A stretch of DNA of 41,573 nt. Origin: a virus. Below the pieces are notes generated by a model. It did no database searches. It was not told the origin of the DNA and worked only from the letters and a program-made list of their open reading frames with translations. The position numbers were made by a program, and so were the translations under genes. This document shows positions 12,010 through 33,474 of the stretch, in pieces. The DNA lies in the IMG/VR virus record IMGVR_UViG_3300020186_000039, positions 1-41,573 of that record, one strand, 5' to 3'. Positions within the stretch are counted from its first letter, which is position 1. Each line of letters begins with the position of its first letter.

Positions 12010-14031
12010 ATGACGCAGTCAATGGCTTTAGATAATACGACCGGCGGGGGCAGTTTAACCCCTAGCCTTGCCCTTGGAGATTCACGCGGGAATCGCTACC
12101 CCAATCAGTTCTTCGATCTGTCCCAGCAGTACATGCCGCCGACGATCAAAGAGCTGTTTCGTTGGTGTACGTTTTACTATTACAACTCTCCGCTCATTGG
12201 CTCAGCGATTAAAAAAGTAAGTCGCTATCCAATCACGGATGTAATCTTTGATGATGAGTATGAATCTGTAAGGGATATCTGGAAGAAAGTTCTAGTGGAT
12301 GCCCTTAAGATAAAAGACCGTCTCATGGAAGTCAACCTTGATTACCATGTGTACGGAAATGCCTTTGTTTCTATACATTTACCATTTACACGGTTCCTGA
12401 TTTGTGGCTCTTGCAAAGCGCGCCAACCCATCCGCCAGTGGGAATGGTCCTTTCGTATGGCGACGTTTCAGTTCCAGGGGCAGTGCACTAAGTGCGGCGT
12501 TAATGGGCCAGTTGAAGTAAAGGACGTGCCGTACAAAGATTACAAGGCCGTTAAGCTGATCCGCTGGAACCCAGAGAACATGCAGATTAAGTTCAATGAG
12601 TACACCGGCCGGTACGTCTACATGTACACCGTCCCTACAAAACTCAAGAACGCAATCAACCGCGGCGACAAGGACATCCTCGAAGACATCCCTTTGGTGG
12701 TCCTTGAGGCTGTACGCAAGCGTCGCATGATTCGGTTCAGCGAAGACAACATCAAGCACCTAAAGAGCCCGACCCTGGCTGAACAAGACCAGGGCTGGGG
12801 TAAGCCAGCGATCATCCACGTCCTCAAAGACATGTTCTACTTTTACACCCTGCGGCGTGCGCAGGAAGCGATTGCCCTTGAGCACATCGTTCCGTTTGAC
12901 ATCATCTACCCCTTACCCAACGCACAACAGGATCCGTACATCCACACGGACCTTGCAAGCTGGCGCCAACAGATTGAGCTAGTGATCCGCAAGCATCGCC
13001 AAGATCCTAACTTCAAAGCCGTGATTCCAATCCCGGTTGGCTTTGGTCGCCTTGGTGGTGATGGCAAGACGCTTCTTCTTTCACCAGAGCTTAACTACAT
13101 CACGCAGACGGTTGTTGGTGGGATGGGAATCCCCCAAGAATTCCTTTTCGGTGGGTTGAACTTCACAGGGTCAAGCGTATCGCTTAGAACTCTTGAGAAT
13201 GACTTCATTCAGAACAGATCACAACTGCTCGACTTAGTAATATGGATCAAAGATAAACTTCGTATCTGGCTTGGTCTGCCTGACTGCGACAGCATGCGCT
13301 TTTCTGACTTCCGCATGGCGGATGATATTCAGAAGAACCAGCAGCTCATCGGCATGAACGCTCAGGGCAAAGTCTCTGACCAGACGTTACTCACAGAGCT
13401 TGGCTACGACTACGACCAGGAGATCAAAAAGAGGATAGAAGAGATCTACGTCGCCAACTACCTTATGGACCTACAGTCCAAGGGCGGGGCAAAAAGCCAA
13501 GGTGAGGCATCCCTCATTCAGTTCAACTACCAACAAAAGGTTCAGGAGCTAGCGGAGAAGGCCCAGGCCGACGCACAAGCTCGCATCACTGCTATGGGTC
13601 AGCAGCCAGGGCAGGCTCCTGGTTACGGCGGAGAGATGGGTCAGCCAGGCGCACTCGAAGCACAAGGTGGAGCACCAGGCGCAACGCAAGACCCCAACCA
13701 ACAATTGGCAGGTGGCCAACCCCCCGCCCCACAGCCAAGTGGTGGCATGAACCAAACATCTGAGTTTGCCCAAAAAGCCCCCCAGGACCAAATCGACTCA
13801 AAGGTAAACTCTTGGGCTGCCCAGCTCGTCAAGCTAGGCCCCATGCAGGCCAAGACCGCAATCGCAGAGATCAAGATGAAGATGCCTGATGTTGGCGCTG
13901 CGCTCGAGCGGAAGTATGGAGAGCTAATGGCTCAAGGTAACCCAGCCGGTGGCAACCCAGTCCCCAGGCTGGAGCCAAATATGAACCCTCTGCCAGAACG
14001 TGGTGTGCCTCGAAGGGCTGGAGCAGTCTAG
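12010..14031 (+). CDS. Portal protein with an inserted zinc-ribbon-like segment
   Basis: The protein has 673 residues, with GAGG 5 nt before the ATG. The order of segments, including YNSPLIGSAIKKVSRYPIT, VYGNAFVSIHLPF, GGMGIPQEFLFGGLNFTGSSVSLRTLEN and a C-terminal helical stem region, matches portal proteins of tailed phages. The portal forms a dodecameric ring at one capsid vertex for DNA passage and tail joining. CGSCKA and CTKCGV, about 34 residues apart near residues 137 and 163, form a likely CxxC/CxxC metal site, unusual for a portal. Residues about 525-585 are Gly/Pro/Gln-rich, then a helical domain follows. Confidence 0.85.
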   Translation: MTQSMALDNTTGGGSLTPSLALGDSRGNRYPNQFFDLSQQYMPPTIKELFRWCTFYYYNSPLIGSAIKKVSRYPITDVIFDDEYESVRDIWKKVLVDALKIKDRLMEVNLDYHVYGNAFVSIHLPFTRFLICGSCKARQPIRQWEWSFRMATFQFQGQCTKCGVNGPVEVKDVPYKDYKAVKLIRWNPENMQIKFNEYTGRYVYMYTVPTKLKNAINRGDKDILEDIPLVVLEAVRKRRMIRFSEDNIKHLKSPTLAEQDQGWGKPAIIHVLKDMFYFYTLRRAQEAIALEHIVPFDIIYPLPNAQQDPYIHTDLASWRQQIELVIRKHRQDPNFKAVIPIPVGFGRLGGDGKTLLLSPELNYITQTVVGGMGIPQEFLFGGLNFTGSSVSLRTLENDFIQNRSQLLDLVIWIKDKLRIWLGLPDCDSMRFSDFRMADDIQKNQQLIGMNAQGKVSDQTLLTELGYDYDQEIKKRIEEIYVANYLMDLQSKGGAKSQGEASLIQFNYQQKVQELAEKAQADAQARITAMGQQPGQAPGYGGEMGQPGALEAQGGAPGATQDPNQQLAGGQPPAPQPSGGMNQTSEFAQKAPQDQIDSKVNSWAAQLVKLGPMQAKTAIAEIKMKMPDVGAALERKYGELMAQGNPAGGNPVPRLEPNMNPLPERGVPRRAGAV

Positions 14032-15354: not shown

Positions 15355-18300
15355 ATGGCAAATTTTGATGTAGAAAAACAGTTCGCCTCAATTAAGAAAT
15401 CGGCTGTCGACGCCGTGAAAGAGATATTCCCCGTTGACGGTAAATTGAGATCGTTGCGCCTTGAAAAGGTGTGGGTAGACGATACGATGGACTCGTCTGA
15501 TTACGCATCTCAGACGCAAGCCAAGAACAAAGAGGCCACTTGGGGCGCTCCGGTATACGCCGCGCTTACTCTTGTCGACAAAGCCACAGGCAAAGAGATC
15601 GACAAATCACCCAAGATAAAGCTTTTTACGCTGCCAAAACTGACACAGCGTTTTAGCTACATCGTAGGGGGTAACGAGTACCAAGTACACAGCCAGCTAC
15701 GTCTGAAATCCGGCGTGTACACACTAAGAAAACAGAATGGTGAACTCAAAACACAAGTCAACCTGGCCAAAGGAAAGAACTTCGACCTTACGTTCAACGA
15801 GCGCACGGGAGTTTTCTACATTCAAAAGGTGGGCGGCGGGCAGGCGAACATACCGCTTTACCCTGTGCTCACCTACCTTGGTGTGTCCCCCTCTAGAATC
15901 GCTGACCGCTGGGGGTCAAAGCTCGAAGGTGCCAACCGCGTCACCGACCCCAAGATCATCGCACGTGCCACAGCTGCCTTTGGTATAAAGCAGGGGGATC
16001 TCAAAGACTACTTCAGCAAAACGGAGATCAGCCCCGAAACTACAAAAGAGGTACTAGGCCAAGCCTTTGAGCGTGTCGACGGGCCCATGCTCCTTGAGAC
16101 ATCAAAAAACCTCCTTGACGTGCACCTCGGCGACAAGCAACCTACTGACAGGGACTCGCTAGCTTTTAAAGAGCTGCATTCTGTTGAAGATTATCTTCAC
16201 GAGCGGATACAAAAAAACAAGCAAAGCCTGTCCTTTAAACTCAAACGCAATATCGACAACGTGCGCCGGACTAAGCTAAGTCAGCTTGTGAATCCAGGAT
16301 CTTTTAACTCCGTTGTCGAAAGCTTCTTTACCCAAGATGACAAGGCCGCTACACCAGAGCAGACTAACCCACTTGAGATGCTTACCGGCCAGTACAAAGT
16401 CACCATCATGGGGTCAGGCGGTATCAACAGCGACCATGCTGTTACACCAGAGATGCGGGAGATCCACCCGTCACACTACGGATTCCTTGACCCTATCCAC
16501 ACGCCAGAGAGCAAGCGCATTGGTGCTAACCTGCATCTCCCACTAGGAGCTGTAAAGGATGGTAAGACGCTTAAGATGCTCGTTCAGGCAAAAGACGGTA
16601 AACCAGTCCTGGTAGATGCAAACGACATCCACGATAAGATTCTGGCCTTCCCCGGGCAACAGGGTGACAAGATCAGGGCTCTGCACCAAGGCAAAGTTAT
16701 TGAGACCACACGTAGCAAGGTGGACTACACCACTCCAAGCCCGCAGGCTCTTTTCTCTTACAGCTCAAACCTCGTACCGTTCTTGCCGTCTAACCAAGGC
16801 AACCGGGCGATGATGGCGTCTAAGATGCTTGAGCAAGCCATCTCCCTTAAGCACAGAGAGGCGCCGCTTGTCCAGGTTGGCTTTGGGAAAACTACTTCTG
16901 AGCAGATGATCGGTAAGGGCTCCGCTGCTACGTCCCCAGTAGACGGCGTGGTAAAAAAGATCACAAAAGACTTCATCATTATTAAAGGTGATGACGGCAA
17001 AGACGTTAAGGTAAACGTTTACAGCAATTTTACCCTTAACCGTAAATCATTCCTAAATCACGAGGTCATCGTTAAAGAAGGTGACAAGGTAAAAAAAGAT
17101 CAGCTCCTAGCTGACAGCAACTTCACTAAAGACGGTACTTTGGCACTCGGCACGAACATGCGCGTGGCCTACCTGCCGTACAAAGGCCTGAACTTTGAAG
17201 ACGGCGTGGTCATCACCAACTCAGCCTCCAGGAAGCTCACCAGTGAGCACATCCATAAAAAATCAATCGAGCTAAATGACACCACCATTTTAAACATGCC
17301 GGCGTTCATCAGCTTTTACCCAAACGCTATTACTGGCGACAACATCCGAAAACTCGACAAAGACGGCATCATCCGCAAAGGCTCCAAAGTAAAACACGGT
17401 GAGGCGGTTATCATAGCTTTGCAGAAACGTGCGTCATCCGCAGCTGTAGCTAGCTTTAGCCGTGTCCTCTCAGACCGACCAAAAGACGTAAGCCTTTATT
17501 GGACGATGGAAGACGAGGGAGAGATCCTTGACGTGCAGCGTGCCGGCAGCAAAGTGACTGTGTTCATTAAGACAGAAGAGGCCGCCAAGATCGGAGATAA
17601 ACTCTCTGGTCGCATGGGTAACAAGGGCATCATCACTAAGATCATCGGCGATGAAGAGGCCCCCCATGACAAAGAGGGCAAGCCTGTAGAGATACTCCTG
17701 AACCCCCACGGGGTTATCACCCGTATTAACATAGGGCAGATCTATGAATCAGCCGCCGGAAAAGTCGCTAAAAAAACAGGAAAAACCCACACCGTCAACA
17801 ACTTCTCAGGAGAAAATTATCTTGAGTCGACTAGAGGACTTCTCAAACAGCATGGCATTGACGATAAAGAAGAACTCTTCGACCCCATTACGAAAAAGTC
17901 GCTCGGTAAGATCCATGTCGGAAACCCCTATATCCTCAAGCTCTTCAAACAAGGAACAGCGAACTTTTCTGTTAGGCAAGGGGGACCTGGACAGCCTTAC
18001 GACGCAAATCAGCAGCCCCTCAAAGCTGGAGGAGAAGAAGCGTCCAAGTCGATGGACCTACTCACCGTCTACTCCATGCTCTCCCACGGAGCTCGTGCCA
18101 ACCTAAGGGAGATGAGCTCTCTTAAGAGCAACCAGAATGACGAGTTCTGGAAAGCATTAAAAGCTGGCCAAACGCTGCCAGCTCCAAAATCGCCATTTGT
18201 TTATGACAAGTTCATCAGCTACCTAAAGGCTGCTGGTATTGACGTTCAAAAGAACGGCAGTAAGCTTGTCTTGGCTCCGCTCACGGATGAGCAGGTCAAG

Positions 18301-21300
18301 GCTATGTCTAACGGTGAAATTAAAAAGAACTTCTTCTACCGAGGTAAAGACCTTGAACCTGTCCGTGGTGGCTTCTTTGACCAGAACCTAACCGGTGGCT
18401 ATAAGGGCATACGCTGGAACCACATCGAGCTTAAAGAGCCTGTCATCAACCCTGTCTTTGAAACAGCTGTGCGCAAAGTCACTGGGCTAGGTGGCAAGCT
18501 AGATGAGCTTATCGCCGGCAAGCTGCATCTCAGTAAAGACGGAAGCTTCAACACCGAAGGCAAGGGCCTTACTGGTGGCCATGCTATAGAAAAACTTCTC
18601 AAAGAGATCGACATAGATATTGAGCTTAAGACGCTGCAAAAGAAATCAGAGAAAGCCACTGGGGTGGCACTTGACGATGTGAACAAACGTCTCCGCTACC
18701 TCAAGGCTTTAAAAGATAATAAGATGAAACCGCATGAGGCATATATGCGTAGGTCGCTTCCGGTTTTACCTCCCATCTACCGACCCATCTATCCTCTACC
18801 AGACGGTAGTATGACTACCTCTGACATTAACATCCTGTACCAGAACACAGGTGTGGTGAATGAGATGATGCATCTCCCTGTTATGGAGCTGCTCTCTGAA
18901 GAAGAAAAGGGTGACGTCCGAAAGGATATGTACGAGCACGTCAAAGGCGTGTCAGGTCTTACAGACCTCAATATCAAAGGGCGTGTGCGAGAAGGCTTCA
19001 TCTCAGAGATCAAAGGTGGCACTGGTGGCCAACCAAAAGAAGGCTTCTTCATTTCTAAGATGTTGTCAAAGAAACAAGACTTCGTCGGCCGTGGAACTAT
19101 CATCCCTGAGCCAGAACTCGGCGTCGACCAGGTAGGCTTGCCAGAAGAAATGGCTTGGAAGCTGTTTGAGCCGTTCATTGTTCGTGAGCTTAAAAACCAC
19201 GGTAAGAGCCCACTCCAGGCTAAAGAAGAGATCAAGCAGAAGACCCCGCTGGCTAAGCGTGCCTTGGATATCGTCCTTGAGGAGAGGCACGTTCTACTAA
19301 ACCGTGCACCATCGCTTCACAAGTTCTCTATCATGGCGTTTAAACCCACCATCACGTCTGGTAGGGCCATCAAAATACCGCCGTTGATAGTTAAAGGATT
19401 TAATGCTGACTTTGACGGAGACACGATGACCGTCCATGTGCCAATCACAGAAGAGGCAAATGAGGAGGCAAAGAAAATGTTGCCATCTCGTAACCTGTTT
19501 CAGGCGGGTACGGACAAGCTTATGATTGCCCCGTCCCAAGAAGCGCAGATCGGGCTTTTTTACTTATCAAAAACGCCCGTGGGCAGAATTCAGATCAATA
19601 AGATCTTAGGCAGCAAGTTTGCCATCACCTCTGTCCTTGATAAAAAACAGACTGGTACGATGCTTCACCGCATGGCTAAAGAGTTGCCAGCACAAGACTA
19701 CGCCAAAGCTGTGGCCCTTTTAAAGAGCACAGGAGAGCAGCATGCGTATGATCGTGGTTTCAGCCTTGGGCTTGAAGATTTGGCTAACATTACGAAGGAC
19801 AGGGACAAAGTTGTCGCGGTAGCAACTGCTATGTCCAAAGGCGTCACCGATGTTAAAGAGCTGGCTGCTGTCAATAAAAAAGCCGTCGACCTCATGGACA
19901 ATATTATTGAGAAGAAGCTAAAAGACACGGGCAACCCTCTTTATGACATGGTCGAGTCTGGAGCTCGCGGCGACAAGACGCAGCTTAGATCCATCGTTGC
20001 AAGCCCACTCTTTGTTACTGATGCACGTGGTAACACCATCGCAAGACCAATTAAGAAGTCCTACGCTGAAGGCCTGGACGTTAGTGATTACTGGCTATCC
20101 ATGTACGGCGCCCGCCGCGGCGGCATGGACAGAGCTATTCAAACCAGCCTTCCGGGAGCGTTCTCTAAAGACATCATGGCATCCACCGTAGACAACGTGA
20201 TCAGCGGGGTGGACTGTGGAACTAAGGACGGCATTAAGCTCAAGGTGGAAGACCACGACGCCCTTGATCGGTATTTGGCTGGAGACCAAGCGGGCTGCTC
20301 GCATAATACCCTTATTACGCACCAACTTCTCAGCAAGATTAAAAAGGCGGGGGCTAAAGAAATCAAAGTTCGTTCACCGCTCACTTGTCACCAGTCACGA
20401 GGAGTATGCGCTCACTGCCATGGACTCGATGAACATGGATCTAACCCAGAGCTGGGGGAGAACGTTGGGGCGAAGGCTGGCCAGACCATTTCTGAGCCGC
20501 TTATTCAGATCGTTATGAACAGCCGCCATACAGGTGGGGTTGCAGGCACTGGTGCTGACGCTGGTGGGTACCAGCGCATCAACCAGCTACTCCAACTGCC
20601 AAAGATCGTGCATGGTGCTGCAGCTCTTGCACCGCATGCAGGACAAATCACCAAAATCGAAAAGGGCCTAGCTGGTGGCTTCAACGTTTTCGTTGGAGTC
20701 GATAAGGCGTTTGTAGCCCAAGGCTTAACCCTGAAGGTAAAAGTCGGTGATAAGGTTCAATCAGGGGATCCACTGTCTGACGGCGTGATCAAACCCCAGG
20801 AGCTTGTAAAGTACAAAGGCATGCAGCCTGCCCAGGAGTACATCGTCAACGAGCTGCAGAGCGCCTACAAGAACCAGGGCGTCGGGATTCAAAAGAGGAT
20901 CTTTGAGACGATCGTGCGTAGCCTCGGCAACACGACTAAGGTGATCAACAACCCAAAGAACTCTGACTATATACCTGGAGATGTTGTGCCATATACGGTT
21001 GCAGAAGCTCACAACCGTAATCTTCAGATCAATATCCCTGTGGATGAAGCTGATGGCTACCCCTTAGTACAAGAAGGAACTGGATTAAAAGTCGGGAAAG
21101 TGCTGGTCAAGCAGGACCTAATTCTTCTAAAATCAAAAGGTTATAAAGAAATCAAGGTTGAAAAAGAAGCCCTCCAGCATGCTCCGTTTCTAAAAGGAAT
21201 GAGCACCTTGCCACTTCTTAAGAAGGATTGGATGGGTGCTCTGGGTTACCGTTATTTGGCTAAATCGCTTATCGAGGGTGCCAGTCAGCGGTGGTCGACA

Positions 21301-21378
21301 GACGTTGCAGATTACCACCCAGTACCAGCGTTGGCTCATGGGTCAACATTTGGGCAAGGGAAAGAAGGGAAGTACTGA
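15355..21378 (+). CDS. Single-chain fused beta/beta-prime RNA polymerase
   Basis: The 2007-residue protein carries beta features first: LDPIHTPESKRIG, LPYKGLNFEDGV, and GDKLSGRMGNKG with Lys749 and Lys757. Beta-prime features begin near residue 970: LPVLPPIYRPIYPL, LLNRAPSLHKFSIMAF, the catalytic NADFDGD (Asp1352, 1354, 1356), the trigger-loop segment YGARRGGMDRAIQTS, and a zinc site of Cys1621, 1678, 1685 and 1688. The beta-prime N-terminal CxxC zinc ribbon is absent; the sequence goes from EPVRGGFFDQN straight to RWNHIELKEPV. No alpha, omega or sigma gene is seen. All key residues are intact, so it should be active. The start lacks a clear Shine-Dalgarno. Confidence 0.95.
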   Translation: MANFDVEKQFASIKKSAVDAVKEIFPVDGKLRSLRLEKVWVDDTMDSSDYASQTQAKNKEATWGAPVYAALTLVDKATGKEIDKSPKIKLFTLPKLTQRFSYIVGGNEYQVHSQLRLKSGVYTLRKQNGELKTQVNLAKGKNFDLTFNERTGVFYIQKVGGGQANIPLYPVLTYLGVSPSRIADRWGSKLEGANRVTDPKIIARATAAFGIKQGDLKDYFSKTEISPETTKEVLGQAFERVDGPMLLETSKNLLDVHLGDKQPTDRDSLAFKELHSVEDYLHERIQKNKQSLSFKLKRNIDNVRRTKLSQLVNPGSFNSVVESFFTQDDKAATPEQTNPLEMLTGQYKVTIMGSGGINSDHAVTPEMREIHPSHYGFLDPIHTPESKRIGANLHLPLGAVKDGKTLKMLVQAKDGKPVLVDANDIHDKILAFPGQQGDKIRALHQGKVIETTRSKVDYTTPSPQALFSYSSNLVPFLPSNQGNRAMMASKMLEQAISLKHREAPLVQVGFGKTTSEQMIGKGSAATSPVDGVVKKITKDFIIIKGDDGKDVKVNVYSNFTLNRKSFLNHEVIVKEGDKVKKDQLLADSNFTKDGTLALGTNMRVAYLPYKGLNFEDGVVITNSASRKLTSEHIHKKSIELNDTTILNMPAFISFYPNAITGDNIRKLDKDGIIRKGSKVKHGEAVIIALQKRASSAAVASFSRVLSDRPKDVSLYWTMEDEGEILDVQRAGSKVTVFIKTEEAAKIGDKLSGRMGNKGIITKIIGDEEAPHDKEGKPVEILLNPHGVITRINIGQIYESAAGKVAKKTGKTHTVNNFSGENYLESTRGLLKQHGIDDKEELFDPITKKSLGKIHVGNPYILKLFKQGTANFSVRQGGPGQPYDANQQPLKAGGEEASKSMDLLTVYSMLSHGARANLREMSSLKSNQNDEFWKALKAGQTLPAPKSPFVYDKFISYLKAAGIDVQKNGSKLVLAPLTDEQVKAMSNGEIKKNFFYRGKDLEPVRGGFFDQNLTGGYKGIRWNHIELKEPVINPVFETAVRKVTGLGGKLDELIAGKLHLSKDGSFNTEGKGLTGGHAIEKLLKEIDIDIELKTLQKKSEKATGVALDDVNKRLRYLKALKDNKMKPHEAYMRRSLPVLPPIYRPIYPLPDGSMTTSDINILYQNTGVVNEMMHLPVMELLSEEEKGDVRKDMYEHVKGVSGLTDLNIKGRVREGFISEIKGGTGGQPKEGFFISKMLSKKQDFVGRGTIIPEPELGVDQVGLPEEMAWKLFEPFIVRELKNHGKSPLQAKEEIKQKTPLAKRALDIVLEERHVLLNRAPSLHKFSIMAFKPTITSGRAIKIPPLIVKGFNADFDGDTMTVHVPITEEANEEAKKMLPSRNLFQAGTDKLMIAPSQEAQIGLFYLSKTPVGRIQINKILGSKFAITSVLDKKQTGTMLHRMAKELPAQDYAKAVALLKSTGEQHAYDRGFSLGLEDLANITKDRDKVVAVATAMSKGVTDVKELAAVNKKAVDLMDNIIEKKLKDTGNPLYDMVESGARGDKTQLRSIVASPLFVTDARGNTIARPIKKSYAEGLDVSDYWLSMYGARRGGMDRAIQTSLPGAFSKDIMASTVDNVISGVDCGTKDGIKLKVEDHDALDRYLAGDQAGCSHNTLITHQLLSKIKKAGAKEIKVRSPLTCHQSRGVCAHCHGLDEHGSNPELGENVGAKAGQTISEPLIQIVMNSRHTGGVAGTGADAGGYQRINQLLQLPKIVHGAAALAPHAGQITKIEKGLAGGFNVFVGVDKAFVAQGLTLKVKVGDKVQSGDPLSDGVIKPQELVKYKGMQPAQEYIVNELQSAYKNQGVGIQKRIFETIVRSLGNTTKVINNPKNSDYIPGDVVPYTVAEAHNRNLQINIPVDEADGYPLVQEGTGLKVGKVLVKQDLILLKSKGYKEIKVEKEALQHAPFLKGMSTLPLLKKDWMGALGYRYLAKSLIEGASQRWSTDVADYHPVPALAHGSTFGQGKEGKY

Positions 21379-23198
21379 TGGGACTATCTTCAAATGAGCT
21401 AGCCGCTCGCATCGCTTTACTAAAAAAGGACCGTGCTATGTCTACCGAAATGATGGAGGAGAAGTGCGCATCATCTAGGGAGAAGGCTCTAAATTTATTT
21501 AAGCGTCTTGGTAAGAATAAAGAGTTCGTTATTGTTGGCAAACCTGGTGCAGACATATATGACACTAACGATCATATATGGAGAGCTGTAAGGCAGCAGC
21601 ACCCTATTAAAGCTGTAAGAGGCGCGGTTCGCAAACTGCGTGGCAAGGAAGGACTAAAGGCGTTTGATGAGAGCTTGAGAGGCGTGGCCGACACACAAAC
21701 CCTCGGTGCCCTCGGTGGGACTATCGCACCTGGTCGCAAAGGAACGAAATCCTATATATCCAGGGGGGTGGCTTCTGGTGATCGTTCCGGCATGCCTGGC
21801 CTACGTGAGGTTCTTCACCATGAGGGGTTTCACGCGAAGGTCCCAATTTTAGGCAGTTCAGAGATCTTAGCACACGCCTACGGAGGATTAAAAAGCAAGA
21901 AAGGGCGGCTTGACCCTGCGCAGGGTGTTAACGCTTTAAAGCACCTTTGGGCGACTAGACCAGGACGAGCTATTTTCGAGGCCGGAGTTGGGGCCGGAGT
22001 TGTTGGTGGTGGTGGTGCAGCATTAGCTAGTCACGTAAAAAAGAGGACGGATAAAAAAGAAGTGGGCTCTGCGAAGACCACAGGCCTCAATACTGATGCA
22101 GCGTCTCTTGAATCATCTATTGATACTGGGGCTGGGGAGCGTCTGACTAAAAAAGCGTTCTGGCAAGGATTTGAGAAAAGAGCCCAGCATAATAAAGAAG
22201 CTGTGCTGCTTGCTGGAGGTGTACATGTTCTTCAGAATGCCCTTATGCGTAATAAAATTCGATCGCCAAAGTTTGCTAAAACCGTTGCCTCAGAATTCCA
22301 ACAAGGGTTGGCGAATAAAGCCCCCAGTAAAATGAAACAGTTTTTTAGGTCTATGGTGGGTGGCGCTACTGTTCCCGAAGCATCAATGGTTAGGGAACAT
22401 GTACGGCATTTGGGGGATGAGGCCAGGAAAAACCTAGTAGAGCACGGTGTAAAATCTCTTGGAAAAAAAGAGATGCTGTTGGCAAGGGTGGTCTCTAAGG
22501 GTGATTTCCACAAACTATTAGATGACAGGTACTTCAATAAAAATAACCCCGCACACCAAGCTATTTTAAAGACGGTAGAGGGGCGCATCGGGGCTAAGAT
22601 TACACCTGAAAACGCCGAGGCTCTTTCAAAGGCATGGAAAAGCAAAGACAGCCCCATAACCTCAAATCTTCTATCAGGGATAACTCGCGGCCCAGGGCAG
22701 AGTGTGGGCGGTAGGTTGCACATACCGCAACACACAGGAAGTACAGTTAGCCACGGGGCATCACTAGCAGGTCATGTGGCTGGTGGTGCAGTTACAGGCC
22801 TAGTGGACCCACTCACTGGTGCAATGAACGCAAGCAAGTCTATTCTCACCAACCCCATAAGCAGAGGTTGGCTATCAAAGATCAAAGGTGGGGCGAAAGC
22901 TCTAGCTGGGTCTGACAAGATGTTCATGTCGGACCCTATCGCCAAAGGCAAAGCAATGGGGTTGGCTGGGAAAGAGATACCTAAAGCTGAGAAGTTAGTT
23001 CGTGGGTATGGGCTGAATGCTGCTACATCTGAAATGCAAAATACGGCGAACTCTTTATCACTAGCGGCACATGGCGCAAAAAACCCATCTAGTATGGCTG
23101 CAGCACAGGCAAGCCCAATAGTGCGGCGTCCGCTGCCTTTAGTTCAGCCTCATATGGGATTAACGCCTATGGGTCTGGGTGGCTTTAACGGGGTGTAG
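21378..23198 (+). CDS. Two-part protein: HExxH peptidase-like domain plus AFWQGF-motif region
   Basis: The protein has 606 residues. The ATG at 21378 overlaps the polymerase stop (TGATG), with AAGGG-type sites upstream. Residues 147-152 are HHEGFH, a zinc-peptidase HExxH signature with a Glu in SSEILAHA about 10 residues on. A hydrophobic Gly/Ala segment follows near 205-225. At residues 260-269, KAFWQGFEKRA occurs internally, as if a second protein started there, followed by a 330-residue helical, basic and Gly-rich part. Coupling to the polymerase suggests a joint function, perhaps as virion cargo or processing factor. Confidence 0.7.
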   Translation: MGLSSNELAARIALLKKDRAMSTEMMEEKCASSREKALNLFKRLGKNKEFVIVGKPGADIYDTNDHIWRAVRQQHPIKAVRGAVRKLRGKEGLKAFDESLRGVADTQTLGALGGTIAPGRKGTKSYISRGVASGDRSGMPGLREVLHHEGFHAKVPILGSSEILAHAYGGLKSKKGRLDPAQGVNALKHLWATRPGRAIFEAGVGAGVVGGGGAALASHVKKRTDKKEVGSAKTTGLNTDAASLESSIDTGAGERLTKKAFWQGFEKRAQHNKEAVLLAGGVHVLQNALMRNKIRSPKFAKTVASEFQQGLANKAPSKMKQFFRSMVGGATVPEASMVREHVRHLGDEARKNLVEHGVKSLGKKEMLLARVVSKGDFHKLLDDRYFNKNNPAHQAILKTVEGRIGAKITPENAEALSKAWKSKDSPITSNLLSGITRGPGQSVGGRLHIPQHTGSTVSHGASLAGHVAGGAVTGLVDPLTGAMNASKSILTNPISRGWLSKIKGGAKALAGSDKMFMSDPIAKGKAMGLAGKEIPKAEKLVRGYGLNAATSEMQNTANSLSLAAHGAKNPSSMAAAQASPIVRRPLPLVQPHMGLTPMGLGGFNGV

Positions 23199-23212: not shown

Positions 23213-23272
23213 GATAAGATGTTATGAGGAAAGAACCTAATGGATAAGATGTTATGAGGAAAGAACCTAATG
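23213..23272 (+). repeat. 30-bp tandem duplication of a translation initiation region
   Basis: Two perfect copies of a 30-bp unit (23213-23242 and 23243-23272) each contain TGAGGA, spacer and AACCTAATG. The second ATG (23270) starts the metallopeptidase-like gene; the first (23240) opens a frame of four codons after the ATG before a TGA. This is a recent duplication of a ribosome-binding region. Confidence 0.9.
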
Positions 23273-24001
23273 GATAAGACAGCATCAGCTTTCTGGGATG
23301 GATTTGAAAAACAGGCGCTTTCAGCAACCACTGAAAAAGCTTTGGTGGCTGGTGTATTTGGTATGTATGGTGCCTTGTTCGGCGGCTCCTTAGGTGCTGT
23401 TGTTGGTAACCATAAGGGAGCCAAAAGTGGCGTAAAATTTTTGGATGAGCTTCGAACTAGTAAAGAAAAAGTAGATGCTAAAGACGCGTTTGCAAAGATG
23501 AAAAAACTTCTCCCCGAGAACACCATACTTCTTACAAGAAATGATCTACACCGTCTTATCGACAAAGAGAAAAGTTACGGCAAGCGAACAATTTTGCAGA
23601 GCCTAAGAGACATAACAGAAAACGGAAACGCTGGTGCTATCCACCAATCAAAAATTAAAGGGACAAGCAAAAAATATCTGCCCGATGTCTTAACAAAAAA
23701 TCACGTTATCCTTTCAGATAACAAAATAGTCCCGTCTATCCTCCTACATGAAGCGGGCCACATTATTGATTACGAAAAAGAAACAAACAAAGACTTTCTC
23801 CCTAAAATGTGGAGCAAGATGAGAAGTACCTATAAGCAAGAGATCGCCGCATGGGATGAAGCTCCTGGCGAAGTAAATAAAAAGATGAGAGAGAATGCGC
23901 TTAGCAGCTACAGCCCCATGTATCACGGCGTAAGGGGCGGTGCACTGGCTGGCGCTACATTGGGTTTGGTTACTGGTTTAAAGATGATGAAGAAAAACTG
24001 A
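23270..24001 (+). CDS. HEAGH metallopeptidase-like membrane protein with AFWDGF motif
   Basis: The protein has 243 residues. It starts MDKTASAFWDGFEKQA, the shared motif at its very N-terminus. A Gly/Ala-rich hydrophobic segment follows (about 28-45), and another at the C-terminus (GALAGATLGLVTGL). Residues 160-164 are HEAGH, and EIAAWDEA lies about 35 residues later, giving the HExxH...E layout of gluzincin-type zinc peptidases. It is probably a membrane-associated protease or a degenerate relative. The gene lies downstream of the polymerase and has a duplicated ribosome-binding region. Confidence 0.7.
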   Translation: MDKTASAFWDGFEKQALSATTEKALVAGVFGMYGALFGGSLGAVVGNHKGAKSGVKFLDELRTSKEKVDAKDAFAKMKKLLPENTILLTRNDLHRLIDKEKSYGKRTILQSLRDITENGNAGAIHQSKIKGTSKKYLPDVLTKNHVILSDNKIVPSILLHEAGHIIDYEKETNKDFLPKMWSKMRSTYKQEIAAWDEAPGEVNKKMRENALSSYSPMYHGVRGGALAGATLGLVTGLKMMKKN

Positions 24002-24014
24002 AAGGGCAGCACTG

Positions 24015-24161
24015 ATGCGCTCAAATGGAAAAGCAGCCGGACTCAATATGCAGGCAAAGAGGGCTAGGCCAGAGCAGTATTCTGAGAAGACAGCCTTCTG
24101 GCAAGGTTTTCAAGAGCAAGCACGTGGGTTTACTAAATTACTCTATATTGGAGAAAGATAA
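24015..24161 (+). CDS. 48-residue peptide carrying the AFWQGF motif
   Basis: The reading frame starts at an ATG 14 nt after the previous gene and ends in a TAATG overlap with the gene at 24161. GGGCAG upstream is a weak ribosome site. Residues 25-36 are KTAFWQGFQEQA, so about a quarter of the peptide is the shared motif; the first 24 residues are basic. Overlap with the following start and presence of the motif support a real gene, either a minimal motif protein or the remnant of a longer one. Confidence 0.6.
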   Translation: MRSNGKAAGLNMQAKRARPEQYSEKTAFWQGFQEQARGFTKLLYIGER

Positions 24162-24640
24162 TGAACGCGTTCCTCGATGGATTCTACAAAAGAGCCGAAG
24201 TCAGCAAATCAGACCTAAAAGAAGTTCTCAAAAAACATGAGGACAGAGAAACGCCGGAGCAAGAGGCTGCTGAATCCGAACGCGAACAAAAGGTTGAACG
24301 CGAGGCGGGGGTTGAGAAGAAAGCATTTTGGCAAGGTTTTAAGACTGCCGCCGAACAAGGCACTGCTGCAAACCCTGAGGTACTCACTGCTAAGCAAGCG
24401 CCACTAAAGAAAGCTAAACACGTGGGGTCTACTGGGCCAGTGGTAAAAAGAAAGCCTCCTCCTGGTCCAGCCGGAAAAATAGGAAAAGCGGTCAAATATG
24501 GCCCACTAGTTAAAAACAGGCTTATTAGTGGCGGTGTGGGGTTGGTAACTGGTCTGGGTCTTAGCGCTATTGGTCATCACATCTATTCTAAATCAACAAA
24601 AGATGAGACGAAGAAAGAAGATGGCCAAGTCTCTGCATAG
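24161..24640 (+). CDS. Membrane protein with two AFxxGF motifs
   Basis: The protein has 159 residues and a TAATG-coupled start. It begins MNAFLDGFYKRA, and a second copy, KKAFWQGFKTAA, follows at residues 53-64 after an acidic helical linker. The middle is Lys/Pro-rich, and a C-terminal hydrophobic Gly-rich segment (about 124-140) is probably membrane-spanning. Two motif copies suggest an internal duplication or fusion of two motif proteins. The stop codon lies within a GCATAGCTAAAAA element repeated three times just downstream. Confidence 0.7.
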   Translation: MNAFLDGFYKRAEVSKSDLKEVLKKHEDRETPEQEAAESEREQKVEREAGVEKKAFWQGFKTAAEQGTAANPEVLTAKQAPLKKAKHVGSTGPVVKRKPPPGPAGKIGKAVKYGPLVKNRLISGGVGLVTGLGLSAIGHHIYSKSTKDETKKEDGQVSA

Positions 24641-24909: not shown

Positions 24910-25194
24910 TTAGTTCCGGGCTTTTTGAACGAGATTCTTGAATTCTTTACCTGGTGTGAACTTAGGAACTTTGCGTGCTGGGATCTTAATCTGTTCGCCC
25001 GTCTGTGGGTTGTGACCTTTACGTGCAGCACGTGCGGTTTTCTTGAAGGTTCCAAACCCGACTAGTTTTACAACCTCTCCTTTTTTTACCTGGTCAGAGA
25101 TAGTGTTGGTGATGGACTTCAAAGCTGCCTCTGCCTTGGTTTTGCTAAGACCAGTGTCTTTTGCAACCTTGGTCACCAATTCTGCTGTATTCAT
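24910..25194 (-). CDS. hup: HU-family DNA-binding protein
   Basis: The protein has 94 residues, near the usual length of HU/IHF subunits. It shows the full family layout: N-terminal helices (MNTAELVTKVAKDTGLSKTK), VKLVGFGTFKK, the arm signature RAARKGHNPQTGE with the intercalating Pro in NPQTG, and the C-terminal helix (PKFTPGKEFKNLV). HU dimers bend and compact DNA. A phage copy may act in replication, transcription or genome condensation. The leader contains a hairpin that overlaps the ribosome site (see 25202-25226). Confidence 0.95.
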   Translation of the reverse strand: MNTAELVTKVAKDTGLSKTKAEAALKSITNTISDQVKKGEVVKLVGFGTFKKTARAARKGHNPQTGEQIKIPARKVPKFTPGKEFKNLVQKARN

Positions 25195-25295: not shown

Positions 25296-25391
25296 TCAGA
25301 GCTGCCATCTTACATCGTGCAGCTCTTTGTGGTGCGCTGGACATAACCACACAACAACCAGAGGCTTGGAATAGTCTCCATGCGTGGGCCT
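25296..25391 (-). pseudogene. Remnant of a zinc-binding HNH-like small protein
   Basis: Read leftward from 25382, the frame gives HGDYSKPLVVVWLCP followed by AHHKELHDVRWQL and a stop at 25296. This resembles the C-terminal half of small phage zinc-finger/HNH-like proteins (pattern HxDYxKPLxVxWLCPxHHxxxH). No start codon exists in frame, an in-frame stop lies at 25407-25409 inside the SSB gene, and the N-terminal CxxC half is missing. I read it as a truncated gene left between HU and SSB. Confidence 0.5.
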
Positions 25392-25830
25392 AGAACGGGA
25401 TACTATCTAGATCGGATGCCCCACTATTACTACTTTGTACAGGGGCTCCTGCATCACCTGGATGCGGTGCACGTTCTCCTCCGCTACTACCTTTACTATC
25501 TAAAAAATGAATGCCGCCGTACATGTTTGCAACGATCTCGGTGGTATACCGCTTAACGCCATCTTTGTCGTCCCACGAGCGGGTTTGCAGCTTTCCTTCT
25601 ACAGCAACCTTGCTACCTTTCTTAAGATACTTCACTGCGTTTTCTGCCTGCTTATCCCAGACGATAACGCGATGCCACTCGGTCTTTTCCTGTTGCTTAC
25701 CTGAGTCGTCCTTCCAGCTTTCGCTAGTGGCGACGCTGAGTGTGGTTACTGCCTTTTGACTCTGTGTGTACCTTATCTCTGGGTCTTGACCAAGGTTCCC
25801 GATAATGATTACTCTGTTCATTCCTGCCAT
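25390..25830 (-). CDS. ssb: Single-stranded DNA-binding protein
   Basis: The protein has 146 residues. Its OB-fold region begins [19 protein letters not shown] and includes [20 protein letters not shown] and [18 protein letters not shown], typical of bacterial SSB. A Gly/Ser-rich linker leads to the acidic tip DLDSIPF, matching the D-D-x-I-P-F-type tail that recruits partner proteins. AAAGG lies 8 nt before the first ATG. It coats single-stranded DNA in replication and recombination. A TATAAG element at 25871 is a likely promoter. Confidence 0.95.
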
Positions 25831-31243: not shown

Positions 31244-31641
31244 TGTCACCTGAATATACGATTTTGGCACACCCCCCTTAGGTGACAACACATTGGTCTA
31301 GGAGAAACAGGTGCTTAAGGTCGATTTCGGCAAAAAATGGAAAAACACTGAGGTGACAGGAATGAGAGTATATATACTGTGTGTAAACAAATACTTATAC
31401 TCTCTCTCTATCCATTTGTCACCTTGTCACCTCATATTTCAGGTTAAGGCAGCATCTGATAACGAATTCAATTTTTTTTCTCTCCGAACAATATTTTATT
31501 TAAACTCCCATATACCTCTGCTTAATCCTGGATTTTGCGGTGACAAGGTGACAAACTGCCGTAACTGGCTGTTAAGACAAATAAAAACCTGTCACCTGAA
31601 TCTAAATTTTGCTTGTGACCCCAGGTGACACTCAGGTGACA
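31244..31641. repeat. AGGTGACA octamer array with 17-bp inverted repeat at terL
   Basis: Nine exact AGGTGACA/TGTCACCT octamers lie in 400 bp: forward at 31280, 31351, 31546, 31623 and 31634; reverse at 31244, 31417, 31425 and 31590. A one-mismatch copy is at 31538. Two pairs are head-to-tail. TTTGTCACCTTGTCACC (31415-31431) is a perfect inverted repeat of 31539-31555, enclosing about 107 nt. The array is AT-rich between sites, runs from the gap after the gene at 30214 into the terL start, and suits a multisubunit DNA-binding protein such as a terminase small subunit, initiator or repressor. Confidence 0.9.
31311..31358 (+). other. Possible displaced 5' end of terL
   Basis: GTG at 31311 has AGGAG 6 nt upstream, and the frame starts MLKVDFGKKWKNTEVTG, a plausible protein start. 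ACACTGAGGTGACA here (31345-31358) is nearly identical to ACACTCAGGTGACA at 31628-31641, in the same codon phase as terL. Joining at these repeats would give MLKVDFGKKWKNT(E/Q)VTKPTD and a good ribosome site for terL. In the present sequence the frame continues into the array and stops at 31628, so it looks like a terL start separated from its gene by a 283-bp segment. Confidence 0.45.
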
Positions 31642-33474
31642 AAACCGACCGACATCGAAAACATTAATGATTACGAGGACTCAGAGCCAGACTCCGACCA
31701 AGTGGGGGCGCACTATCACGATAAGGTCGTTTTACCGACCCAAACGACGGTGGCGAAAGTCACCGAGGCATTTAATGCAGATGGGACGATCCGGCGGATC
31801 ATAAAAGCGTCCAAATCCGACTTTGTCCACAACCTGATTTACCTCGATGGGGGTAAGTTTGATTTCACCGGTAGGGAGTACCTCTTCCCGCTATACAATC
31901 GGCGCGACCGAGACGTACTTCTTAAGACGGCTCGCCAGGTAGAGAAGACGACCTACCTCGCAAACAACCTCGTCGTGTCATCAGTTGTTCAGCCTTACAA
32001 CAAGTCCCTTTACGTTTCGCCGTCACACACCCAGACACGACAGTTCTCTAACGAGAAGCTGCGGCCAGCGATCGAGAAGTCTCCTTTTGTCAGAAAGTAT
32101 TTCCAGGACCACGCCGTCTCAACGCAGGTGTTTGAGAAGGGTTTTACCAACGGCAGCTACATCTTCCTTCGCTCGGCGTTTAGGTCCGCGGATAGAACTC
32201 GCGGTATTTCAGCTCGGATCCTATGCCTTGATGAGGTTCAAGATTTCTTAGGCTCAGAGATCCCAGTCATCATGGAGTGTACGTCCCACTTTCCAGATGC
32301 TATGCGGCTCATGGCTGGTACTCCAAAGTCTTTGGATAACCCCATTGAGACTTACTGGCAAGAGACCAGTCAGAACGAGTGGCTTGTGCCGTGCGGCTGT
32401 GGCAAGTGGAACTTCCTTGATGAGACCAATATTGGTCCCACCAAGGATTACCTTAGTGGCAAGTTGCCACCTGGACCTATCTGCAAGAAGTGTAAAAAAC
32501 CCCTGAACGTCCGCAACGGCCGCTGGATGACTACCTGCTCTGGTAAGCAGATCCAGGGCTACCGCATCCCGCAGCTTATGGTGCCTTGGATCGTTGGTCT
32601 CCTTGACCAGTGGATGCGCATCCTATGGAAAAGGGATAACTACCCGTTAGGACAACTCTATAATGAGGTTCTGGGCCTGAGCTATGACTCCGCGTCAAAG
32701 CCGATCACCCGGGATGAGCTCATCGAACTTTGTGCCAGCTACGACCTGTGGGACCCCAGCAACCTAACCTCAGACATCATTGGGGAGTCGCGGAGGTACC
32801 TCCTGACGGCTGGAGTCGATTGGGGGGAGGGTAACGACGGGTCAGAGAAGTCGCCCTCTGGGAAGATCAGGAACGCTTCCTACACGGTGCTCACTATTGG
32901 GGCATATACGGATCAGAAGACCTGGTCGGTCAAGCTCGTAAAAAAATACGAAGGACAAGAGATTGACCCTGATCATGTTGTCAAGGATATCGCTAGGATA
33001 TGCCGCACCCTCCAGGTGCAGCTGATTGGGGTTGACTGGGGCCACGGTTGGGGCGTAAACAATCATCTCACCCGCCTTATGACTCACGGCACCCAACACA
33101 TCATCAATTCACATGACAAACACAAGGTTGTCCAGTTTCAGTATTTGCCCAAACTCAAGCAGCGCATGAAGTGGGATCCGCTAGGGTTCCGTTACCACCT
33201 TCAGAGAAACTTCATGATGTCCGAGCTTTTCTTTGACATGAAGCACGGTTTTATCCAGTTCCCACGATGGACGCAGATTGAGCGTTACGCGAAAGATATA
33301 CTGGCCATCTATTCTGAGTATGTCGAGTACCGTCGTGAGATGAAGTATGACCACCGCTCAACTGATCCAGATGACTGGTTTCACAGTTTGCATTACGCCA
33401 AGCTAGCGTCTGATATCTTGACGGGTAAGAGTCGTCGGTACACACTCGATATCGACCGCAGCGATAATTCGTAG
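31609..33474 (+). CDS. terL: Terminase large subunit
   Basis: The frame has 621 codons, close to T4 gp17. The start is uncertain: TTG 31609, GTG 31615 or GTG 31636, none with a ribosome site. Numbering from 31609, the ATPase has Walker A-like ARQVEKTT (108-115), with Glu replacing the usual Gly before Lys113, and Walker B ILCLDE (Asp208, Glu209). A Cys cluster (CGCGKW, CKKCKK) follows near 264-297. The nuclease domain has AGVDWGEGNDG, IGVDWGHGWG and the terminal DPDDWFHSLHYA. It packages DNA through the portal and cuts it. Confidence 0.9.
   Translation: MLVTPGDTQVTKPTDIENINDYEDSEPDSDQVGAHYHDKVVLPTQTTVAKVTEAFNADGTIRRIIKASKSDFVHNLIYLDGGKFDFTGREYLFPLYNRRDRDVLLKTARQVEKTTYLANNLVVSSVVQPYNKSLYVSPSHTQTRQFSNEKLRPAIEKSPFVRKYFQDHAVSTQVFEKGFTNGSYIFLRSAFRSADRTRGISARILCLDEVQDFLGSEIPVIMECTSHFPDAMRLMAGTPKSLDNPIETYWQETSQNEWLVPCGCGKWNFLDETNIGPTKDYLSGKLPPGPICKKCKKPLNVRNGRWMTTCSGKQIQGYRIPQLMVPWIVGLLDQWMRILWKRDNYPLGQLYNEVLGLSYDSASKPITRDELIELCASYDLWDPSNLTSDIIGESRRYLLTAGVDWGEGNDGSEKSPSGKIRNASYTVLTIGAYTDQKTWSVKLVKKYEGQEIDPDHVVKDIARICRTLQVQLIGVDWGHGWGVNNHLTRLMTHGTQHIINSHDKHKVVQFQYLPKLKQRMKWDPLGFRYHLQRNFMMSELFFDMKHGFIQFPRWTQIERYAKDILAIYSEYVEYRREMKYDHRSTDPDDWFHSLHYAKLASDILTGKSRRYTLDIDRSDNS

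What the first reader, a model, noticed from the sequence alone, without database searches (positions are those of the whole stretch)
15355..21378. Single-chain beta/beta-prime RNA polymerase in a phage
One uninterrupted 2007-codon gene holds the complete order of bacterial beta and then beta-prime motifs, including NADFDGD, both beta lysines and the trigger-loop segment. The beta-prime N-terminal zinc ribbon is cleanly missing and the C-terminal zinc site is kept. Phage multisubunit polymerases such as those of phiKZ-like phages are split into several genes, while beta-beta-prime fusions are known in Helicobacter and Wolbachia relatives. From memory, Weinheimer and Aylward (2020) described Caudovirales with deep-branching multisubunit RNAP, which is the obvious comparison. 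No alpha, omega or sigma partner is visible, so promoter recognition and assembly would be unusual.
Basis: partly seen in the sequence, partly recalled or inferred. Interest (0 to 1): 0.92.

Follow-up and report, generated by a model that had tools for sequence, protein, structure and literature searches.

The report
One-chain bacterial-type RNA polymerase in phages
This virus of bacteria carries the two large halves of a bacterial RNA polymerase joined into one protein, and hundreds of related phage sequences do the same; a cultured relative carries its version inside the virus particle, probably to start reading viral genes at once.

Summary
Confirmed and widened. ORF 15355-21378 encodes one 2007-residue chain: bacterial beta (1-964) joined directly to beta-prime (965-2007). 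All catalytic features are present, the N-terminal beta-prime zinc ribbon is absent and the C-terminal zinc site is kept. It is not an artefact: an IMG/VR scan found 392 relatives, 66 complete intein-free one-chain proteins are continuous across the junction, codons show strong purifying selection, and AlphaFold models of both halves match bacterial beta and beta-prime (TM about 0.8). The phage proteins form one clade outside the sampled bacterial RNAPs.

Cultured relatives (Salmonella phage Arash, Vibrio phages D69/D148/D181) keep beta fused to N-terminal beta-prime but carry C-terminal beta-prime as a separate gene. They nest inside the one-chain clade, so their split looks secondary (AU p 0.025). 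In Arash (published proteomics) these proteins are among the most-detected virion proteins, together with a sigma-like protein whose gene occurs in 31 of 38 related records. No alpha was found.

Best reading: an alpha-less one-chain virion RNAP working with a phage sigma. New variant of a known kind. Whether it coincides with Weinheimer and Aylward's mReC could not be tested.

The parts
15355..21378 (+). single gene for fused beta/beta-prime RNA polymerase, 2007 aa
15355..18246 (+). beta part, residues 1-964
   Evidence: AlphaFold pLDDT 85.9; Foldseek best match bacterial beta, TMq 0.80, E 4e-72
18250..21375 (+). beta-prime part, residues 966-2007; follows beta with almost no linker
   Evidence: model of 926-2007 pLDDT 86.9; Foldseek best match bacterial beta-prime, TMq 0.81, E 1e-61; alignment over the junction
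17593..17628 (+). GDKLSGRMGNKG, beta catalytic lysines K749 and K757
   Evidence: both invariant in 66 of 66
18388..18411 (+). place where the bacterial beta-prime zinc ribbon 1 is missing (about residues 1012-1019)
   Evidence: alignment with Acinetobacter and Patescibacteria beta-prime
19402..19422 (+). NADFDGD catalytic Mg loop, residues 1350-1356; intein site in several relatives
19575..19640 (+). region (about residues 1407-1429) where the Arash and Vibrio relatives break the chain into two genes; intact here
20215..20418 (+). C-terminal beta-prime zinc site, Cys 1621, 1678, 1685, 1688
   Evidence: 61-64 of 66 conserved
20527..20547 (+). HTGGVAG, trigger-loop segment, residues 1725-1731; intein site in L111 and L124
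21378..23198 (+). next gene, ATG overlaps the RNAP stop (TGATG); function unknown
   Evidence: sequence; listed ORF 21291-23198 starts too early
12010..14031 (+). portal protein gene upstream; orthologous to Arash gp204 (31%) and its Vibrio D69 counterpart (32%)
31609..33474 (+). large terminase (GpA ATPase type), orthologous to the Arash and Vibrio D69 terminases (29-30%)

Best explanation
The gene encodes the complete catalytic core of a bacterial-type two-barrel RNA polymerase as one polypeptide. The covalent beta/beta-prime link takes over the task of holding the two halves together, so that no alpha dimer is needed. The enzyme is packaged into the virion, enters the cell with the DNA and transcribes early phage genes; promoters are recognised through a phage-encoded sigma-like protein packaged with it. 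Shown: the one-chain gene, intact catalytic residues, predicted bacterial folds, purifying selection, wide conservation, no recognisable alpha in the records tested, co-occurrence of a sigma-like gene. Taken from a relative: virion packaging (published Arash proteomics). Inferred: catalysis, alpha-free assembly, pairing with that sigma, early transcription.
For: Anatomy and folds; purifying selection; hundreds of relatives with the same fusion; portal, RNAP and terminase orthologous to Arash and Vibrio D69; Arash gp206 is the most detected virion protein (3516 spectra against 1333 for the major capsid protein), gp216 1210, sigma gp10 467 (PMC10585845); gp10 orthologues in 31 of 38 records, 27 of 34 without the profile's seeds; that profile's listed PDB matches are all sigma factors and Pfam Sigma70_r3 matches four of four; no alpha in 11 records with working controls.
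Against: No biochemistry on any member. Packaging is known only for Arash, whose enzyme is in two chains, and the Arash authors themselves allow carry-over of abundant proteins. The window fragment has no sigma gene. Alpha could be too diverged to find or supplied by the host. The beta flap and clamp were not tested for sigma binding.
Confidence: 0.6

Rival explanations
1. Non-virion enzyme: it is made after infection and transcribes middle or late genes; the RNAP seen in Arash particles is carry-over of an abundant protein.
For: The Arash authors raise carry-over as a possibility, and several other enzymes were also detected in the particles.
Against: RNAP has the highest spectral count of all, above the major capsid protein; the gene lies in the structural region next to portal.
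Confidence: 0.2
2. The chain is an active RNAP core but still recruits host alpha, omega and sigma, as a replacement for host beta/beta-prime only.
For: Both halves keep the bacterial fold closely.
Against: The lineage encodes its own sigma-like protein in most long records; the beta-prime zinc ribbon 1 is lost. Host alpha binding was not testable here.
Confidence: 0.15
3. The fused protein is cut by a protease into separate beta and beta-prime after synthesis, so the working enzyme has two subunits.
For: Splitting is tolerated: the Arash and Vibrio relatives split the chain at another place.
Against: The junction is a tight, confidently predicted hairpin with almost no linker and the fusion is kept in all 66 complete one-chain proteins.
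Confidence: 0.05
4. Artefact: assembly join, frameshift repair or cellular contamination.
For: None found.
Against: Same fusion in many independent metagenomes; clade apart from bacterial RNAP; genomes that carry a fused copy also carry an ordinary rpoB.
Confidence: 0.01

Closest known systems
RNAP of Salmonella phage Arash (gp206 + gp216) and Vibrio phages D69/D148/D181
   Same: Homologous along the whole chain (about 28-35% identity), same clade, beta fused to N-terminal beta-prime, orthologous portal, terminase and (Arash, D69) sigma-like gene.
   Different: C-terminal beta-prime is a separate gene; annotated as separate beta and beta-prime subunits or as hypothetical, the partial fusion not pointed out in the Arash passages read.
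mReC, multimeric RNAP-encoding Caudovirales (Weinheimer and Aylward 2020, PMC7481178)
   Same: Tailed phages whose RNAP is alignable to cellular beta/beta-prime and forms a clade apart from bacteria.
   Different: No fusion is mentioned for them; their reported capsid family PF07068 is absent here. Overlap of the two sets could not be checked.
Single-chain phage RNAPs: crAss-like phi14:2 gp66, P23-45 gp64/gp96, YonO
   Same: Two barrels on one chain; some are virion RNAPs (PMC10770324).
   Different: Those lack recognisable similarity to cellular beta/beta-prime beyond the catalytic region; this one keeps nearly the whole bacterial architecture.
phiKZ-type jumbo phage vRNAP and nvRNAP (PMC7598289)
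   Same: Phage-encoded, no alpha or omega.
   Different: Four or five separate polypeptides, no recognised sigma, much more diverged.
rpoB-rpoC fusions of Helicobacter and Wolbachia relatives (from memory, not tested)
   Same: Beta fused to beta-prime in that order.
   Different: Cellular enzymes with alpha, omega and, from memory, both zinc sites.

Membership tests
Two-barrel RNA polymerase of the cellular (multisubunit) type | Beta DPBB with two catalytic lysines and beta-prime DPBB with NADFDGD | tested here: met
   invariant in 66 of 66
Two-barrel RNA polymerase of the cellular (multisubunit) type | Overall bacterial beta and beta-prime fold | tested here: met
Two-barrel RNA polymerase of the cellular (multisubunit) type | RNA synthesis activity | not testable with these tools
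   needs purified protein
Bacterial RNAP core enzyme (alpha2 beta beta-prime omega) | Encoded alpha partner | tested here: not met
   PF01193 in 0 of 11 records, controls rang in 13 of 14; host alpha not excluded; omega not tested
mReC (Weinheimer and Aylward 2020) | Phage RNAP beta and beta-prime alignable to cellular ones, with NADxDGD, forming a clade apart from cells | tested here: met
   but not compared with the mReC sequences themselves
mReC (Weinheimer and Aylward 2020) | Major capsid protein of family PF07068 (reported for the 8 mReC capsids found) | tested here: not met
   0 of 37 lineage records; T4, Carin-5, YerA41 and RHph_TM30 ring as positive controls
mReC (Weinheimer and Aylward 2020) | Large terminase matching PF03237 (17 of 31 in the paper) | tested here: inconclusive
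   weak matches in 8 of 19 lineage records, 5 over the cut-off; PF05876 matches all 33 lineage records tested
Virion RNA polymerase | Protein present in the virion and injected | not testable with these tools
   published proteomics for the relative Arash only
phiKZ-type phage RNAP | Beta and beta-prime divided over four or five polypeptides | tested here: not met
   single ORF

The most novel reading that the evidence does not exclude
A whole lineage of phages with genomes of about 170-200 kb ancestrally carries a self-assembling, alpha-free, one-chain form of the bacterial RNA polymerase with its own packaged sigma. It branches outside the sampled bacteria, and the separate-subunit RNAPs of the Arash kind arose from it by fission, not the fusion from separate subunits.
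Probability: 0.3. Interest if true: 0.8.

Novelty: new variant of a known kind. Interest (0 to 1): 0.62.

Why it matters
Cellular multisubunit RNAPs use an alpha-type platform to bring their two large subunits together. A near-complete bacterial enzyme on one chain, apparently without alpha but with its own sigma, would be a natural test of what alpha and the beta-prime zinc ribbon are for, and a single-gene bacterial-type RNAP would be a useful tool. The lineage also suggests a direction of change: fission of a fused enzyme after the catalytic barrel, where other phage and cyanobacterial beta-prime subunits are also said to be split. Cultured relatives make the virion role testable now.

Tried and rejected
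Frameshift or assembly join: rejected. Host contamination: rejected. Introns as the cause of the longer relatives: rejected for L003/4/5/7/8, whose extra 350-510 residues are in frame and carry intein-splicing and/or LAGLIDADG domains; a group I intron does interrupt the gene in Vibrio D181. Standard Sigma70_r2 and r4 models missed the lineage sigma in the IMG/VR relatives; a search from Arash gp10 found it. The AU test on 48 rows did not finish and was done on 21 rows. Literature searches for phage beta/beta-prime fusions gave no description of this group, but only open-licence papers are held and Drobysheva 2021 was not; supplements could not be read. The whole chain exceeds the 1200-residue limit for structure prediction, so halves were used.

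Full report
OBSERVATION. The window is the whole virus record, a linear 41,573-bp fragment. ORF 15355-21378 is open for 2007 codons. Pfam places Rpb2 domains 3 and 6 between residues 335 and 890 and Rpb1 domains 1, 2, 4 and 5 between 1095 and 1749 of the same ORF. The best PDB sequence matches are bacterial beta-prime chains (5.8e-107). The stop overlaps the ATG of the next gene (TGATG), as in a translationally coupled operon. A portal gene at 12010-14031 and a large terminase at 31609-33474 show a tailed phage.

IS IT REAL. All eight relatives found first (L001-L008; L001 and L006 have identical proteins) encode the whole length in one ORF. An alignment-based scan of IMG/VR found 429 pattern matches, 392 of which encode relatives; 80 were kept. 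A second scan with C-terminal beta-prime gave 40 loci, partly the same contigs. Nearly all loci that hold the complete gene carry one ORF spanning it. 66 complete proteins were extracted (including the window and one from a bacterial MAG contig), 62 of them under 90% identity to each other. Window against L005 (81% identity): dN 0.14, dS saturated; the junction 930-1000 has dN 0.24 with high dS, so it too is under constraint.

ANATOMY. The beta C-terminus runs into beta-prime with almost no linker. AlphaFold puts a confident strand pair at the junction (strands 37-42 and 45-50 of the 926-2007 model, that is about residues 962-975; block pLDDT 92-96). The two halves give mean pLDDT 86.9 and 85.9; residues 867-928 of beta are poorly modelled on their own. 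They match bacterial beta-prime (TMq 0.81) and beta (TMq 0.80) in the PDB; the best viral model for the beta-prime half is lower (TMq 0.73). Zinc ribbon 1 is absent and zinc site 2 is kept.

PHYLOGENY. Separate beta and beta-prime trees and a concatenated tree agree that the 38 phage rows of this lineage form one clade (100*) on a long stem (0.63 and 0.86), apart from ten bacterial RNAPs. The order of branches outside the clade is not secure: cellular sampling is small, one archaeon only, long branches present, quick searches with SH-aLRT support. Six rows with a split chain (Arash, Vibrio D69, L137, L164, L168, L170) form one clade (100*) nested inside the one-chain rows. Forcing the one-chain rows into a clade is rejected at AU p 0.025 on a 21-row subset, with the question asked after seeing the first trees. 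So the split is probably a secondary fission; the evidence is moderate. A beta-prime split after the DPBB domain is described for phiKZ-type and cyanobacterial RNAPs (PMC7598289); whether the position is the same was not tested.

CULTURED RELATIVES AND FUNCTION. Arash gp206 (1525 aa) is beta plus N-terminal beta-prime and gp216 is C-terminal beta-prime; Vibrio D69 is arranged alike, and in D181 a group I intron with a homing endonuclease also interrupts the first gene. Arash proteomics (PMC10585845) reports gp206 as the most detected virion protein (3516 spectra; major capsid protein 1333), gp216 with 1210 and a sigma factor, gp10, with 467. Orthologues of gp10 were found in Vibrio D69, G006 and G007 and, with a four-sequence profile, in 31 of 38 records of the lineage (27 of 34 without the seeds; among records above 119 kb only G023 lacks it). 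The profile's PDB matches listed are all sigma factors (best 3e-9), and Pfam Sigma70_r3 matches all four members. No alpha (PF01193) was found in 11 records while controls rang. This supports a virion RNAP with its own sigma; packaging rests on a split relative and the pairing is inferred.

COMPARISON. The mReC paper reports beta and beta-prime hits per contig and mentions fusion only for crAssphage. Its capsid family PF07068 is absent from this lineage, with working controls. The terminase is of PF05876 type in every lineage record tested, with weak PF03237 in some; since only 17 of 31 terminases in the paper matched PF03237, overlap with this lineage is quite possible. A hydrothermal-mat virus RNAP described as beta and beta prime, placed at the base of mReC, is also published (PMC10159854). 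Carin-5, YerA41 and RHph_TM30, whose RNAP is in separate genes, are a different group with T4-type capsid protein. Derivatives of cellular-type RNAPs with fused DPBB domains are mentioned in PMC10770324. I therefore rate this a new variant of a known kind, not a new category.

LIMITS. Most IMG/VR contigs are fragments. Omega, a possible second phage RNAP, and the complex of the chain with sigma were not examined. No experiment on any one-chain member is known to me.

Noticed in passing
RNAP genes of L003, L004, L005, L007, L008, L059, L064, L081, L101, L111, L117, L124, L137, L154; sites map to window residues about 385, 788, 1356 and 1724: In-frame inserts of 350-510 aa, several with intein-splicing and/or LAGLIDADG domains (three tested), sit at four sites of the RNAP, including directly after the catalytic NADFDGD and in the trigger-loop segment.
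   Followed up: partly
L003, L004, L005, L008, L064 (also L144 and L145, same contigs as L003 and L008): Alleles with one type of intein at the catalytic loop read NADFNGD, the middle catalytic Asp changed to Asn, while 66 of 66 intein-free homologues have Asp. Asn-Gly is prone to deamidation to Asp, so the precursor might mature chemically, or these copies are inactive. Unexplained.
   Followed up: partly
window 21291-23198, 23270-24001, 24161-24640; also G004, G006, G007: A short peptide like AFWDGFEKRA recurs on unrelated proteins of this clade, often near the N-terminus (window 4 hits against 0.25 in shuffles, one of them probably chance; G007 12 against 0.55; none in Arash or Vibrio D69). 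It may be a packaging or targeting tag.
   Followed up: partly
L011 21464-21744 and 17667-17874 (Vibrio phage D181): Two group I introns (RF00028); the first interrupts the RNAP gene at about window residue 479, next to a homing endonuclease gene; the second lies just upstream of the annotated portal-like gene.
   Followed up: partly
L189, L192, L197, L198 (bacterial MAG contigs): More diverged proteins with beta followed by beta-prime on one chain (1283-1801 aa), outside the present clade; L189 and L192 come from genomes that also have an ordinary rpoB. Probably other phage or mobile-element RNAPs, perhaps separate fusions.
   Followed up: no
L179 (Desulfovibrio sp. An276, contig NZ_NFJC01000017.1); G042: An isolate genome holds a 1502-aa beta/N-terminal beta-prime fusion of the Arash type besides its own rpoB: a likely prophage or phage contig, and a possible cultured source.
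   Followed up: no
G006:22673-25690 and G007:80552-83122: The large terminases of two relatives are 1005 and 856 aa instead of about 600, suggesting inteins there too.
   Followed up: no
G004:21137-22567; Arash gp217 (L009 31100-32518): A SNF2-like helicase gene follows the RNAP gene. In Arash the helicase next to C-terminal beta-prime is in the virion (1148 spectra). It could be a RapA-like partner.
   Followed up: no
window 24910-25194 (-) and 25390-25830 (-): Genes that read as an HU-like DNA-binding protein and a single-stranded DNA-binding protein, conserved in relatives; named from their sequence, not from a family search.
   Followed up: no
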